Source: Kutzneria kofuensis
GTDB taxonomy: Bacteria; Actinomycetota; Actinomycetes; Mycobacteriales; Pseudonocardiaceae
DNA length: 64,000 nt
NCBI RefSeq assembly: GCF_014203355.1
Contig: NZ_JACHIR010000001.1
Location: 6,946,038 to 7,010,037, forward strand
Reading direction: 5' to 3'
The translations under genes were made by a program, and so were the position numbers. Positions 45,260 to 51,366 of this stretch are shown here, in pieces (position 1 is the first letter of the stretch; each line of letters opens with the position of its first letter). The notes under the pieces were generated by a model. The model ran no database searches and was not told where the DNA came from. It was given only the letters and a program-made list of their open reading frames with translations.

Positions 45260-47395
45260 TCAGGTGTGCAGCTGTTGTGCCGCAAGGGAAATCGCGGCGT
45301 CCTGGATGGTCTCCTCGGACAACAGGACGGTGAGCGCCGCATCGCCGAGTGGAATGAAACTATCGTCGCTTGCCACCCTTTGGACGATCCCGGTGAAACT
45401 GTTGTCGGCCAGCGCGGTGATCACGCCCTCGGCGACGCCGCCGGTGCGGCGGGTCTCGTCGACGACGAGCACCCGGCCGGTGGCGGCGGCCTCGCAGAGC
45501 AGGTCGTCGACGGGCAGGGGAGCGAGCCAGCGCAGGTCCAGCACCCGGCAGGAGATGCCGACGTCCGCCAGCCGGCGGGCCACCCGCAGGCTCATCCGGA
45601 CGCCGTTGCCGAAACTGACCAGGGTCAGGTCCGCGCCGTCGCCGTAGGTGCGTCCGCGTCCGATCGGCACGTGCTCCAGCGGCGCCGGGGCGAGCCAGCC
45701 GCCGTCGCCGTCGGAGTGCAGGTCCCGGGTGTGGTACAGGGCAATGGGTTCCAGGAACACCGACAGCGTGCCGTCGACATCGGCGGCGGCGACGCAGGTG
45801 CGCAGCATGGCGGCGGCGTCGTCGGGCCGTGCCGGCGAGGCGATCACCAGCCCGGGGATGTCCCGCAGCGCCCCGACGGCGTTGTCGTTGTGGAAGTGGC
45901 CGCCGAAGCCCTTCTGGTACCCGTAGCCGGCGATCCGCACGACCATCGGGTTGCGGTACTGGCCCTGGGAGAAGAACGGCAGCGTCGCGCCTTCGCCGCG
46001 GAGCTGGTCGGCGGCGTTGTGCAGGTAGGCCAGGTACTGGATCTCCGGCACCGGCAGCAGCCCGGACACGCCGAGTCCGAGCCCCAGTCCGAGGATGGAC
46101 TGCTCGTCGAGCAGCGTGTCGAACACCCGCCCCGCGCCGGCCTGTTTCTGCAGCCCACGGGTCACGCCGTAGACGCCGCCCTTGCGCGCGACGTCCTCGC
46201 CGAACACGCACAGCCCCCGATACTGCTCCAGCAGCTGCGCCAGGGTCCGGTTGACCGACTGCGCGAACGTCAACGGCTCGTCCCAGTGCAACGGCTGCAC
46301 ACGCGCCTCGACCTGGGCCGGCCTTCGCGGCGCCAGCGGGGCGACGACCGCCTGCGCGCTGTCCAACTGGGGCCGTCGGGACGCCTCCTCGGCGAGCTCG
46401 CGCACCTCGGCGCGCTTGGCCTCGTACCGGTCGAGCACCTCGGCCGGCGTCAGGATCCCGGCGGCGATCAGGGTTTCCGCGGTGCCCAGCAGCGGATCCC
46501 GGGCCAGCCCGGCGGCGATGTCGGAACTGCTCCGGTACGCCACCTCGGCGTCCGAACCGGCGTGCCCCATCAGCCGCACGGTCGACAGGTGCAGGAACGC
46601 CGGCTTTCGGTGCCGCCGCACGTATTCCACGGCGGCGCCGGCGGTTTCCCGCGTCTGCACGAGATCGAAGCCGCTGGCGTGGAAGTACCGCAGGCCGTCC
46701 CGGCTGCCGTAGGCGCTCGCGATCCAGCCGTGTGGCGTCGGCACGCTGATGCCGATCCCGTTGTCCTCGCAGACGAACAGCAGCGGTAGCGGCAGGCCCT
46801 GATACGCCGTGTAGACGGCAGCGTTGATCGCACCGGCCGCCGTCGAGTGGTTGGCCGAGGCGTCGCCGAAGCTGCACACGGTGATCGCGTCGCCCGGCCA
46901 GGCCGACGGCACGCCGAGCTTGCGCGCCCGCTCGATCGCGAACGCCACGCCCAGCGCCCTCGGCAGGTGCGAGGCGATCGTCGACGTCTGCGGGATGATC
47001 GCGGCGTCGTGGTGGCCGAACACCTTGTGCCGGCCGCCGGCGATCGGCTCATCGGTGGCGGCCATCATGCCCAGCAGCACGTCCATCAGGCCGTTACGAC
47101 CCAGCTGTCGCATCCGCTGCAGGTAGAACGCTCCGGAACGGTAGTGCAAGAGCGCCGGGTCCGTCGGCCGCAGCGCCGCCGCCACGGCCGCGTTTCCTTC
47201 GTGCCCGGACGAGCCGATCGTGTAGTAGCCCAGGCCGCGGGCCCGGAACTCGCGTGCGGCGAGGTCCAGGTGCCGGCTGCCCAGCTGGGCGTCGAACATC
47301 TCCAGCAGCCGCGGCCCGAGCGGGGCCGGCGGCCGCCGCCCGGGCGCCAGCGCCCGCACCGACGCGACGAAGTGCTCGTCGACCTGCTCGGTCAA
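45260..47395 (-). CDS. Fused alpha/beta 2-oxoacid dehydrogenase E1 component (thiamine diphosphate)
   Basis: 711 aa from TTG 47395, which overlaps the stop of the acyl-CoA dehydrogenase; no upstream ATG or GTG is credible. The alpha-like half (residues about 1-370) holds the ThDP/Mg motif GDASANHSTAAGAINAA with EDNGIGISVPTP. The beta-like half (about 400-711) has FGEDVARKGGVYGVTRGLQ and the transketolase C-domain VLVVDETRRTGG. The BCKDH-type subunits are thus fused in one chain. No E2 or E3 gene is adjacent. Context suggests 2-oxoadipate or a branched 2-oxoacid as substrate. Confidence 0.88.
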   Translation of the reverse strand: MTEQVDEHFVASVRALAPGRRPPAPLGPRLLEMFDAQLGSRHLDLAAREFRARGLGYYTIGSSGHEGNAAVAAALRPTDPALLHYRSGAFYLQRMRQLGRNGLMDVLLGMMAATDEPIAGGRHKVFGHHDAAIIPQTSTIASHLPRALGVAFAIERARKLGVPSAWPGDAITVCSFGDASANHSTAAGAINAAVYTAYQGLPLPLLFVCEDNGIGISVPTPHGWIASAYGSRDGLRYFHASGFDLVQTRETAGAAVEYVRRHRKPAFLHLSTVRLMGHAGSDAEVAYRSSSDIAAGLARDPLLGTAETLIAAGILTPAEVLDRYEAKRAEVRELAEEASRRPQLDSAQAVVAPLAPRRPAQVEARVQPLHWDEPLTFAQSVNRTLAQLLEQYRGLCVFGEDVARKGGVYGVTRGLQKQAGAGRVFDTLLDEQSILGLGLGLGVSGLLPVPEIQYLAYLHNAADQLRGEGATLPFFSQGQYRNPMVVRIAGYGYQKGFGGHFHNDNAVGALRDIPGLVIASPARPDDAAAMLRTCVAAADVDGTLSVFLEPIALYHTRDLHSDGDGGWLAPAPLEHVPIGRGRTYGDGADLTLVSFGNGVRMSLRVARRLADVGISCRVLDLRWLAPLPVDDLLCEAAATGRVLVVDETRRTGGVAEGVITALADNSFTGIVQRVASDDSFIPLGDAALTVLLSEETIQDAAISLAAQQLHT

Positions 47396-50244: not shown

Positions 50245-51366
50245 ATGTTCGAGCTGATGGACGAGTGGGGCCCGGAGAAGGTCGTCTGCGTGTCCGACCC
50301 GCGGACCGGCATGAAGGGCGTGCTGGTCATCGACAACACCGCGCGCGGCATGGGCAAGGGCGGCACCCGGATGAGCCCGACGCTGTCCGTCGGCGAGGTC
50401 GCCCGGCTCGCCCGGGTCATGACCTGGAAATGGGCCGGCGTCGACCTGTTCTTCGGCGGCGCCAAGGCCGGCATCCGCTTCGACCCGTCGTCGCCCGACA
50501 AGGAAGCCGCCCTGCGGGCCTTCGTCCGACTCCTGTCCAACGAGATCCCTCGCGAGTACGTCATCGGCCTCGACATGGGGCTCACCGAGCGTGACGCCGC
50601 CATCGTGCAGGACGAGCTCCGGGATCGTGGGGCCGCCGTCGGCACCCCCGCCGAGCTGGGCGGTGTCCCTTACGACGAGCTCGGCGTCACCGGCTTCGGC
50701 GTAGCCGAAGCCACCGACGCCGTCTTCCCGCTTGCCGGTCAGCGGGTCGTCATCCAGGGCCTCGGCGCCGTCGGCCGCGCCGCCGCCCGGCGGTGTGCGG
50801 AGCTCGGCGCCACCATCGTCGCCGTCTCCTCGGCTCTTGGTGCCGTGCACGACCCGTCCGGCCTGGACCTGGATCGTTTGCTGGCCGTCCCCGGCGACGC
50901 CGCCGTCCTCGAATACTCCGGCGGGCAACGCCTACCCCTCGGCGCGGAGTTGCTGGTCCCCACCGACGTCCTGGCTCCTTGCGCCCTCCAGGACGTCATC
51001 GACGCGTCCCTCGCCTCCCGCCTGTCCTGCCGCTTCGTCGTCGAAGGCGCCAACATGCCCACCTCCGCCGACGCCCAGCAGGTCCTGGCCTCCCGTGGCA
51101 TCCCCGTCCTCCCGGACTTCATCGCCAACGCCGGCGGGGTAGTGGCTGCCGCCTACGCCATGGACGCCCGCCACTCCGCCTTCCGCCCCGACCCCGCCGC
51201 CATCTACGCCACCATCTCGTCCAAGCTCCGCGCCAACGCCGCCACCGTCCTGGAGGCGGCTTCGACCACCGGCGCCACCCCGCACCAAGCCGCCCGCGCC
51301 CTGGCCGAGCAGCGGGTTCGCACCGCCATGGAACTCCGCGGCCGAACCCCCGTCACCCGGGATTAG
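50245..51366 (+). CDS. Glu/Leu/Phe/Val-type amino-acid dehydrogenase
   Basis: 373 aa from ATG 50245; GTG 50236 is in frame and no Shine-Dalgarno is seen, so the transcript may be leaderless. The catalytic-domain motif MTWKWAGVDLFFGGAKAGI carries the expected Lys residues. The Rossmann domain has VIQGLGAVGRAAAR, and VEGANMPTSADA and LPDFIANAGGV complete the ELFV fold. It should oxidatively deaminate an L-amino acid to the 2-oxoacid. Beside the putative lysine/aminoadipate genes, the substrate could be 2-aminoadipate; leucine/valine or glutamate are the standard alternatives. Confidence 0.88.
   Translation: MFELMDEWGPEKVVCVSDPRTGMKGVLVIDNTARGMGKGGTRMSPTLSVGEVARLARVMTWKWAGVDLFFGGAKAGIRFDPSSPDKEAALRAFVRLLSNEIPREYVIGLDMGLTERDAAIVQDELRDRGAAVGTPAELGGVPYDELGVTGFGVAEATDAVFPLAGQRVVIQGLGAVGRAAARRCAELGATIVAVSSALGAVHDPSGLDLDRLLAVPGDAAVLEYSGGQRLPLGAELLVPTDVLAPCALQDVIDASLASRLSCRFVVEGANMPTSADAQQVLASRGIPVLPDFIANAGGVVAAAYAMDARHSAFRPDPAAIYATISSKLRANAATVLEAASTTGATPHQAARALAEQRVRTAMELRGRTPVTRD

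What the first reader, a model, noticed from the sequence alone, without database searches (positions are those of the whole stretch)
45260..51366. Compact lysine/2-aminoadipate to crotonyl-CoA route with an unusual fused E1 as candidate 2-oxoadipate dehydrogenase
Seen: ALDH7-like dehydrogenase, glutaryl-CoA-dehydrogenase-like enzyme and a single-chain alpha/beta E1 overlap or nearly touch, with an ELFV amino-acid dehydrogenase divergent. Known: ALDH7 makes 2-aminoadipate and GCDH consumes glutaryl-CoA. Inference: the two missing steps, 2-aminoadipate to 2-oxoadipate and 2-oxoadipate to glutaryl-CoA, would be done by the ELFV enzyme and the fused E1. The E1 is BCKDH-like rather than the OGDH-like DHTKD1 type usually assigned to 2-oxoadipate.
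Basis: partly seen in the sequence, partly recalled or inferred. Interest (0 to 1): 0.75.

Follow-up and report, generated by a model that had tools for sequence, protein, structure and literature searches.

The report
Lysine-to-crotonyl-CoA operon with unusual E1
An actinobacterium carries a compact set of genes that most likely burns the amino acid lysine through 2-aminoadipate and glutaryl-CoA, using a widespread but so far unassigned thiamine enzyme for the step that animals perform with a different protein (DHTKD1).

Summary
In detail: an aldehyde dehydrogenase (ALDH), a glutaryl-CoA dehydrogenase (GCDH) and a single-chain alpha/beta E1 lie one base apart and with a 4-base overlap; an ELFV amino-acid dehydrogenase is divergent. 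(1) The acyl-CoA dehydrogenase is GCDH-type, far from isovaleryl enzymes. (2) Of 100 family genomes 31 have the E1: all 17 with L-lysine 6-transaminase, and all 31 have GCDH. (3) In relatives, lysine transaminase or a candidate pipecolate oxidase sits with ALDH and E1. (4) The four Pseudomonadota orthologs (47-51% identity) on plasmids all lie beside GCDH. (5) The same ELFV enzyme and oxidase occur with HglS, the known 2-oxoadipate decarboxylase, in two genomes. (6) The E1 clade has invariant basic residues absent from 12 other E1s. Corrections: the E1 is a deep clade of its own, no closer to BCKDH than to PDH; the ALDH is not ALDH7/Pcd proper; this genome has no lysine 6-transaminase; the E2 partner is unknown. 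Against: 41 of 56 well-flanked E1 loci have no partner gene nearby. No activity is shown. Ten searches of an open-access library found no printed assignment.

The parts
48551..50128 (-). Aldehyde dehydrogenase, proposed 2-aminoadipate-6-semialdehyde / piperideine-6-carboxylate dehydrogenase (TTG start, or ATG at 50110)
   Evidence: Pfam Aldedh 446.6 bits; nearest solved structures 6fjx, then Pcd 6rtr; with a lysine 6-transaminase homolog and E1 in 6 of 80 fetched loci (two of those six transaminases scanned, both above the TIGR03251 cut-off)
47392..48549 (-). Glutaryl-CoA dehydrogenase (GCDH)
   Evidence: best solved-structure matches all named glutaryl-CoA dehydrogenase (3sf6 573 bits, 3swo, 2eba, 1siq); isovaleryl-CoA dehydrogenases at most 194 bits
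45260..47395 (-). Single-chain alpha/beta ThDP-dependent 2-oxo acid dehydrogenase E1, proposed 2-oxoadipate dehydrogenase E1; TTG start overlaps the GCDH stop (TTGA)
   Evidence: E1_dh, Transket_pyr, Transketolase_C in one chain; model pLDDT 89.8, pTM 0.92; 100/100 clade with Actinomycetota, Myxococcota and Pseudomonadota orthologs
50236..51366 (+). ELFV amino-acid dehydrogenase, divergent; proposed 2-aminoadipate dehydrogenase
   Evidence: PF00208 162 bits, PF02812 74 bits; K41, K65, K77, D113 invariant in 16 of 16; orthologs in the same region as HglS in 2 of 2 HglS-bearing genomes of the 100
50129..50235 (.). Intergenic stretch between the divergent ALDH operon and the ELFV gene; shared control region (inference)
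   Evidence: coordinates of the two starts

Best explanation
The four genes form the lower half of a lysine (or pipecolate) degradation pathway. The ALDH oxidises 2-aminoadipate-6-semialdehyde (in equilibrium with piperideine-6-carboxylate) to 2-aminoadipate. The ELFV enzyme oxidatively deaminates 2-aminoadipate to 2-oxoadipate. The fused alpha/beta E1 decarboxylates 2-oxoadipate on ThDP and passes the glutaryl group to a lipoyl domain supplied in trans by an E2 encoded elsewhere, giving glutaryl-CoA. The GCDH converts this to crotonyl-CoA and CO2. In this genome the semialdehyde probably comes from a sarcosine-oxidase-like flavoenzyme (candidate L-pipecolate oxidase) encoded next to a LysR regulator at another place; in related genera it comes from L-lysine 6-transaminase. 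Shown by sequence: families, order, overlap, co-occurrence, recurrent neighbours. Inferred: every substrate, the E2 partner, and the entry step.
For: GCDH identity. GCDH/E1 gene overlap. Lysine 6-transaminase homologs with ALDH and E1 in six of 80 loci (L048, L051, L063, L090, L094, L104), two of them with GCDH as well; two of the six scanned, both exceed TIGR03251 (684.5 and 687.9 against 520.8). Same 100 family genomes: LAT over cut-off in 17, all among the 31 with E1 (8 of 8 genera); GCDH in 31 of 31 E1 genomes; ALDH in 28 of 31; LAT or the candidate oxidase in 29 of 31. Of 72,556 plasmid records five hold a close ortholog (E 1e-65); the four from Pseudomonadota (47-51% identity) are all next to GCDH (46-52% to the window's), with an aminotransferase in the two Ruegeria loci where actinomycetes have the ELFV gene. 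In G040 and G004 the same ELFV (67-68%) and oxidase (64-66%) genes occur with HglS (PF07063, 2-oxoadipate dioxygenase/decarboxylase), so the substrate made for HglS in those genomes is the likely substrate of E1 in others. ELFV keeps the lysine which in glutamate dehydrogenase binds the side-chain carboxylate (GKGGTRM, K41 in 16 of 16; role recalled). In the E1 clade K124, H459, R466 and H500 are invariant in 56 of 56 rows and not basic in any of 12 other E1s (three of which have a gap at 124); H500 lies two residues before His502, which all 33 chains share.
Against: No assay. 41 of the 56 E1 loci with at least 5 kb on both sides have none of the five partner genes within 6 kb (58 of all 80); the fifth plasmid-collection ortholog (Nonomuraea, L147) has no GCDH match within 6 kb. 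Nine of 37 ALDH genomes lack the E1, so another enzyme can serve there; mycobacterial KGD is known to form ThDP intermediates with 2-oxoadipate (PMC10415282, passages). Three E1 genomes lack this ALDH; two (G056, G087) have neither LAT nor the oxidase. G040 has both HglS and E1. No E2 lies by the E1 in the window or among the annotated genes of the four Pseudomonadota loci. In five Mycobacterium loci the E1 is followed by a CoA-isomerase/transferase-like gene, not explained by this pathway. The basic residues are not placed in a measured structure. The co-occurrence p-values are not corrected for phylogeny beyond counting genera, and the genome search scored only part of its first-look candidates in many genomes, so some absences may be false.
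Confidence: 0.84

Rival explanations
1. The operon is lysine catabolic, but 2-oxoadipate is oxidised by the housekeeping Kgd/OdhA; the fused E1 accepts several 2-oxo acids and is not specific for 2-oxoadipate.
For: Mycobacterial KGD forms ThDP intermediates from 2-oxoadipate (PMC10415282, passages); 9 of 37 ALDH genomes do without the fused E1; 41 of 56 well-flanked E1 loci are not near the five partner genes.
Against: The E1 start overlaps the GCDH stop here, and E1 is adjacent to GCDH in some Actinomycetota and in all four Pseudomonadota loci found; none of the 17 LAT genomes lacks it.
Confidence: 0.1
2. A valine/leucine route: ELFV is valine/leucine dehydrogenase, E1 is BCKDH, ACD is isobutyryl/isovaleryl-CoA dehydrogenase.
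For: E1 has the alpha/beta fold of BCKDH/PDH; the ELFV family includes valine and leucine dehydrogenases.
Against: ACD is GCDH-type; ELFV keeps the glutamate-dehydrogenase-type lysine (role recalled) and its best solved relatives are glutamate dehydrogenases; two other E1/E2 operons exist; E1 is outside the PDH/BCKDH rows of the tree.
Confidence: 0.02
3. ALDH and GCDH serve a cadaverine/5-aminovalerate/glutarate route (ALDH = glutarate semialdehyde dehydrogenase), fed by the LysA-like decarboxylase downstream; E1 is incidental.
For: A LysA-like decarboxylase (43852..45069, minus) lies downstream and is also found in the other members of the genus.
Against: That decarboxylase sits with S-adenosylmethionine decarboxylase and an aminopropyltransferase-like gene, a polyamine set; this ALDH is next to LAT in relatives, which makes aminoadipate semialdehyde; no glutarate CoA-transferase was seen among the neighbouring genes that were scanned, though none was searched for genome-wide.
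Confidence: 0.04

Closest known systems
Eukaryotic 2-oxoadipate dehydrogenase complex (DHTKD1 E1a with shared DLST and E3)
   Same: Proposed reaction 2-oxoadipate -> glutaryl-CoA followed by GCDH; E1 without an E2 of its own in the neighbourhood
   Different: DHTKD1 is an OGDH-type chain (865-876 residues in the solved entries listed); this E1 is an alpha/beta (PDH/BCKDH-type) fusion of 711 residues. Whole-chain Foldseek TM to DHTKD1 is 0.71 by query at 14% identity
HglS (DUF1338/PF07063) route of Pseudomonas putida
   Same: Consumes 2-oxoadipate made from lysine; in G040 and G004 HglS is found with orthologs of this ELFV enzyme and of the candidate oxidase
   Different: HglS makes D-2-hydroxyglutarate (PMC7286885, start of abstract); it was not found in this genome
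Lysine 6-transaminase / Pcd route of beta-lactam-producing actinomycetes
   Same: Lysine -> piperideine-6-carboxylate -> 2-aminoadipate by LAT and an ALDH (PMC9854754, passages)
   Different: There 2-aminoadipate is an antibiotic precursor; here it would be degraded. The ALDH is not Pcd by NCBIfam cut-off
PDH / BCKDH heterotetrameric E1 (e.g. 1w85, 1um9, 1dtw)
   Same: Fold, ThDP-binding half and transketolase-C half, catalytic Glu and His residues (roles recalled)
   Different: Subunits fused; about 26-31% identity in the beta half; separate 100/100 clade on a 2.56 branch; own set of invariant basic residues

Membership tests
Glutaryl-CoA dehydrogenase | Sequence groups with chains named GCDH ahead of other acyl-CoA dehydrogenases | tested here: met
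   four best distinct matches all named GCDH, 380-573 bits, against 194 for the best isovaleryl-CoA dehydrogenase
Glutaryl-CoA dehydrogenase | Decarboxylating activity on glutaryl-CoA | not testable with these tools
   needs an assay
Glutaryl-CoA dehydrogenase | NCBIfam NF045552 (glutaryl-CoA dehydrogenase Acd) cut-off | tested here: not met
   208.6 against 470; the model's name (GlutCoADH_Des) suggests a different GCDH subgroup
ALDH7 / piperideine-6-carboxylate dehydrogenase (Pcd, antiquitin) | NCBIfam NF050084 cut-off | tested here: not met
   339.5 against 730; nearest solved structure is 6fjx, not Pcd or antiquitin
Branched-chain 2-oxo acid dehydrogenase E1 | Clusters with BCKDH E1s rather than other E1s | tested here: not met
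   21 family rows form a 100/100 clade apart from one annotated BCKDH, two annotated PDHs, one unnamed split E1 and the genome's own two split E1s
PDH E1 alpha/beta (NCBIfam) | Curated cut-offs of TIGR03181, TIGR03182, NF006667, NF008854 | tested here: not met
   82.4, 82.9, 123 and 122.7 bits against 411, 394, 321 and 454
OGDH-type E1 (OGDH, DHTKD1, Kgd) | Closer in sequence to OGDH-type chains than to alpha/beta E1s | tested here: not met
   all 34 solved-structure matches at E 1e-10 or better are alpha/beta-type; hhalign to the genome's own Kgd gives probability 36.5, E 0.00037
2-oxoadipate dehydrogenase E1 (functional sense) | Genetic linkage to the steps before and after 2-oxoadipate | tested here: met
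   but 41 of 56 well-flanked loci show no linked partner
2-oxoadipate dehydrogenase E1 (functional sense) | ThDP-dependent decarboxylation of 2-oxoadipate and transfer to lipoyl | not testable with these tools
   needs an assay
Glutamate/2-aminoadipate-type ELFV dehydrogenase | Lysine for the side-chain carboxylate, catalytic Lys and Asp kept | tested here: met
   K41, K65, K77, D113 in 16 of 16; roles recalled from glutamate dehydrogenase; the serine that also binds glutamate's side chain (recalled) is Ala here, judged by eye
L-lysine 6-transaminase route | LAT gene in the genome | tested here: not met
   window genome best 144.7 bits against 520.8

The most novel reading that the evidence does not exclude
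This E1 clade is a bacterial 2-oxoadipate dehydrogenase that evolved independently of DHTKD1 and works without a dedicated E2: in actinomycetes it borrows the lipoyl domain of a shared E2, as Kgd does, and in Ruegeria and Shewanella a FabD-like transacylase encoded directly behind the E1 (found in three plasmid records, all beside this E1) takes over the glutaryl transfer to CoA, a non-classical ending for a 2-oxo acid dehydrogenase reaction.
Probability: 0.15. Interest if true: 0.78.

Novelty: new variant of a known kind. Interest (0 to 1): 0.52.

Why it matters
A substrate assignment would complete one bacterial route of lysine catabolism through 2-aminoadipate, give a second evolutionary origin of 2-oxoadipate dehydrogenase, and offer a candidate for one way in which bacteria turn 2-oxoadipate into glutaryl-CoA, which also matters for biotin precursor supply in alphaproteobacteria (PMC7645780, passages; Agrobacterium itself was not checked for this E1).

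Tried and rejected
Valine/leucine reading: rejected on the ACD, ELFV and E1 evidence. LAT in the window genome: none over cut-off. HglS in the window genome: not found. The LysA-like decarboxylase downstream as part of the pathway: set aside, because it belongs with S-adenosylmethionine decarboxylase and an aminopropyltransferase-like gene. Lysine cyclodeaminase in the window genome: only 30-31% matches to the OCD/mu-crystallin gene found beside ALDH in relatives, so the lysine-to-pipecolate step is open. Alignment to Kgd to place the basic residues against the OGDH histidines: too weak. In the co-occurrence counts I dropped two genomes (G073, G084) and a second copy in G057 that passed E 1e-50 only as 33-35% paralogs of 178-184 bits. 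G086 is counted as E1-positive though its gene matches in two separate pieces, and G076 shows one stop inside; neither was mended. The cut-offs differed by query (E1 1e-50 then 458 bits, LAT curated cut-off, ALDH 1e-150, GCDH 1e-100, oxidase 1e-80). Whole-chain Foldseek matches include transketolase and DXS and were not used as evidence of function. Papers: PMC7286885 (start of abstract and passages), PMC10415282, PMC7645780, PMC9854754, PMC9367764 (passages), PMC12655727 (terms looked for, none found); all others only in search listings. 'Not in print' rests on ten searches of one open-access library.
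Full report
Observation. On the minus strand ALDH (50128..48551), GCDH (48549..47392) and a fused E1 (47395..45260) follow each other with one base between the first two and a 4-base TTGA overlap between the second and third. The ELFV gene is divergent (50236..51366). The window lies in a 10.4 Mb genome. In the three other genomes of the genus among the 100 examined, ALDH, GCDH and E1 are likewise neighbours.

GCDH. The acyl-CoA dehydrogenase is closest to chains named glutaryl-CoA dehydrogenase (3sf6 573 bits, 3swo 546, 2eba 416, 1siq 380); the best isovaleryl-CoA dehydrogenase scores 194. 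The NCBIfam model for one GCDH subgroup (NF045552) does not reach its cut-off (208.6 against 470).

ALDH. The best solved relative is 6fjx (497.6 bits, a Thermus thermophilus ALDH as I recall); Pcd (274), succinate semialdehyde dehydrogenase (267) and antiquitin (251) follow closely together. It does not reach the NCBIfam piperideine-6-carboxylate dehydrogenase cut-off. So 'ALDH7' is not its family, but its neighbours give it the same job: a lysine 6-transaminase homolog lies with this ALDH and the E1 in six of the 80 fetched loci (Streptomyces L048 and L104, Pseudonocardia bin L051, Intrasporangium bin L063, an actinomycete bin L090, Phytoactinopolyspora L094), two of them (L090, L094) with GCDH as well. 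Two of the six transaminases, L048 and L104, were scanned and both are above the TIGR03251 cut-off.

Co-occurrence. In the same 100 genomes of the window's family (46 genera), E1 is present in 31 (matches of 458 bits or more; 33 passed E 1e-50, two of them and one second copy being 33-35% paralogs that I dropped). LAT above cut-off: 17, all E1-positive, 8 of 8 genera. ALDH: 37, 28 of them with E1. GCDH: 73, including all 31 E1 genomes. Candidate oxidase: 35, 20 of them with E1. HglS: 2. Fisher p by genome / by genus: LAT 4e-11 / 5e-6; ALDH 8e-14 / 5e-7; oxidase 5e-5 / 0.003; GCDH 6e-6 / 0.006. These are not phylogenetic tests, the cut-offs differ by query, and in many genomes the tool scored only part of its first-look candidates (for the E1, 11 of up to 51), so some absences may be false. 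Against: nine ALDH genomes lack the E1, three E1 genomes lack the ALDH, and two E1 genomes (G056, G087) have neither LAT nor the oxidase.

Entry step here. The window genome has no LAT (best 144.7 bits). It has the sarcosine-oxidase-like flavoenzyme (74% identical to the one between ALDH and ELFV in G055) at another locus next to a LysR regulator. In L111 (G055) the order ALDH - oxidase - ELFV, then LysR, then GCDH - E1 holds the set in about 14 kb. The nearest solved structure of the oxidase is named sarcosine oxidase (1y56, 244.5 bits); 'pipecolate oxidase' is my inference from context. An OCD/mu-crystallin-type gene (PF02423 in L121) lies near ALDH in several relatives, but the window genome has only 30-31% matches.

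A second line on the substrate. In G040 and G004, the two HglS-bearing genomes of the 100, HglS (2-oxoadipate dioxygenase/decarboxylase) is in the same region as the oxidase (66 and 64%) and the ELFV enzyme (68 and 67%); in G040 HglS and oxidase are adjacent, in G004 the three lie within about 15 kb. HglS converts 2-oxoadipate to D-2-hydroxyglutarate in Pseudomonas putida (PMC7286885, start of abstract). The ELFV enzyme therefore most likely makes 2-oxoadipate, and E1 plus GCDH would take the place of HglS in the other genomes. G040 also carries the E1, at another locus (L116), so the two are not strictly exclusive.

ELFV. In 16 of 16 sequences K41, K65, K77 and D113 are invariant. From recalled glutamate dehydrogenase biochemistry these are the side-chain carboxylate lysine and the catalytic residues; leucine dehydrogenase has a non-polar residue at the first position. 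The serine which also holds glutamate's side chain is Ala here by eye, which could make room for one more carbon (inference). Its best solved relatives are glutamate dehydrogenases (160 bits and less), so it is distant from all of them.

E1. Pfam shows both halves in one chain. No NCBIfam E1 model reaches its cut-off. A tree of 33 E1 chains puts 21 members (Actinomycetota, Myxococcota, Ruegeria, Shewanella, Legionella) in a 100/100 clade on a branch of 2.56, apart from six other fused E1s and six split ones: one annotated BCKDH, two annotated PDHs, one unnamed, and the genome's own two. Several outside branches are long, two of them meet, and Shewanella and Legionella have unusual letter make-up. 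The model is confident (pLDDT 89.8, pTM 0.92) and matches PDH/BCKDH beta chains, and as a whole chain transketolase, DHTKD1 and OdhA. R48, K124, H459, R466 and H500 are basic in 21 of 21 family rows and in 0 of 12 others; H123 in 21 of 21 and 1 of 12; three of the 12 have a gap at 123 and 124. In the 56-row alignment H123, K124, H459, R466 and H500 are invariant. H500 is two residues before His502, the recalled catalytic histidine shared by all 33 chains. In E. coli OGDH two histidines govern acceptance of the 5-carboxyl group (Shim 2011, title seen in the reference list of PMC9367764). A similar role for the basic residues here is inference; no coordinates were available and the alignment to Kgd was too weak.

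Across phyla. Of 72,556 plasmid records five hold a close ortholog at E 1e-65: a chromosome-sized Nonomuraea record (65%) and four from Pseudomonadota (47-51%). All four Pseudomonadota copies lie beside a GCDH: Ruegeria (two strains: aminotransferase - GCDH - E1 - 'ACP S-malonyltransferase'), Shewanella aestuarii (GCDH - E1 - the same last gene) and Legionella adelaidensis (E1 - GCDH). These GCDHs are 46-52% identical to the window's. The Nonomuraea copy has no GCDH match within 6 kb, and the three Myxococcota loci with usable flanks (L078, L085, L091) gave none either. Adjacency of the same two families in three Pseudomonadota genera and in Actinomycetota is the strongest evidence that E1 makes glutaryl-CoA.

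The acyl acceptor. No E2 is annotated near the E1 in those four loci, and none lies in the window. The genome has E2s with its two split E1s, an orphan E2 of 585 aa (L134), Kgd and two short matches. In actinobacteria Kgd/OdhA already depends on a lipoyl group supplied in trans (PMC10415282, passages), so the same is plausible here. The FabD-like protein behind E1 in Ruegeria and Shewanella has no Pfam match, only weak matches to malonyl-CoA:ACP transacylases, and no match in the other loci held at that time. It occurs in three plasmid records, all beside this E1.

What speaks against a tidy story. 41 of 56 E1 loci with 5 kb or more on both sides have none of the five partner genes within 6 kb (58 of all 80); in Nonomuraea and Nocardia the E1 stands among other genes. 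In five Mycobacterium loci it is followed by a relative of 2-methylfumaryl-CoA isomerase (one member scanned: 397.8 bits, below the 725 cut-off). Some members may have another substrate, or the pathway may be dispersed.

Verdict. It is a new variant of a known kind: a 2-oxoadipate dehydrogenase E1 built on the alpha/beta fold. Ten full-text searches found no report of it; subscription journals are mostly not in that library.

Noticed in passing
window 42487-45069 (-): LysA-like decarboxylase, S-adenosylmethionine decarboxylase (PF02675, 121 bits) and an aminopropyltransferase-like gene directly downstream: a polyamine set found in the same order in two other genomes of the genus (L109, L110) and in part in G087 (L012, L123); it may use lysine or ornithine and so compete for lysine.
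   Followed up: partly
L144:11076-12113, L145:11076-12113, L146:11160-12233: FabD-like protein annotated 'ACP S-malonyltransferase' directly behind the E1 in Ruegeria and Shewanella; no Pfam match (two scanned), and the arginine that binds malonyl in FabD (recalled) appears absent by eye.
   Followed up: partly
window 51923-53967 (-): IS701-family (450 bits) and IS5-family (133 bits) transposase genes just beyond the ELFV gene.
   Followed up: no
window 55910-57490 (-): Benzoylformate-decarboxylase-type ThDP enzyme above its NCBIfam cut-off (677.7 against 493); similar proteins by eye near the operon in two other genomes of the genus (L109, L110).
   Followed up: no
L032:10186-11412 and four other Mycobacterium loci (L030, L033, L034, L047): A relative of 2-methylfumaryl-CoA isomerase (L032 scanned: 397.8 bits, cut-off 725) follows the E1, hinting at another CoA-ester context for the same E1 in mycobacteria.
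   Followed up: partly
L124 (G022) 2450-8869 and 9961-11124: ALDH, candidate oxidase, ELFV and GCDH in a genome where no fused E1 was found; a ThDP decarboxylase-type gene lies just upstream and could be a further substitute.
   Followed up: no
L116 and L132 (both G040): One genome holds both HglS and the fused E1, the E1 next to a LysR regulator and an amino acid permease.
   Followed up: no
L141, L154: A different fused alpha/beta E1 (about 30% identical) lies beside a non-ribosomal peptide synthetase gene in Streptomyces xanthii, with a relative in a genome of the window's genus (G057).
   Followed up: partly
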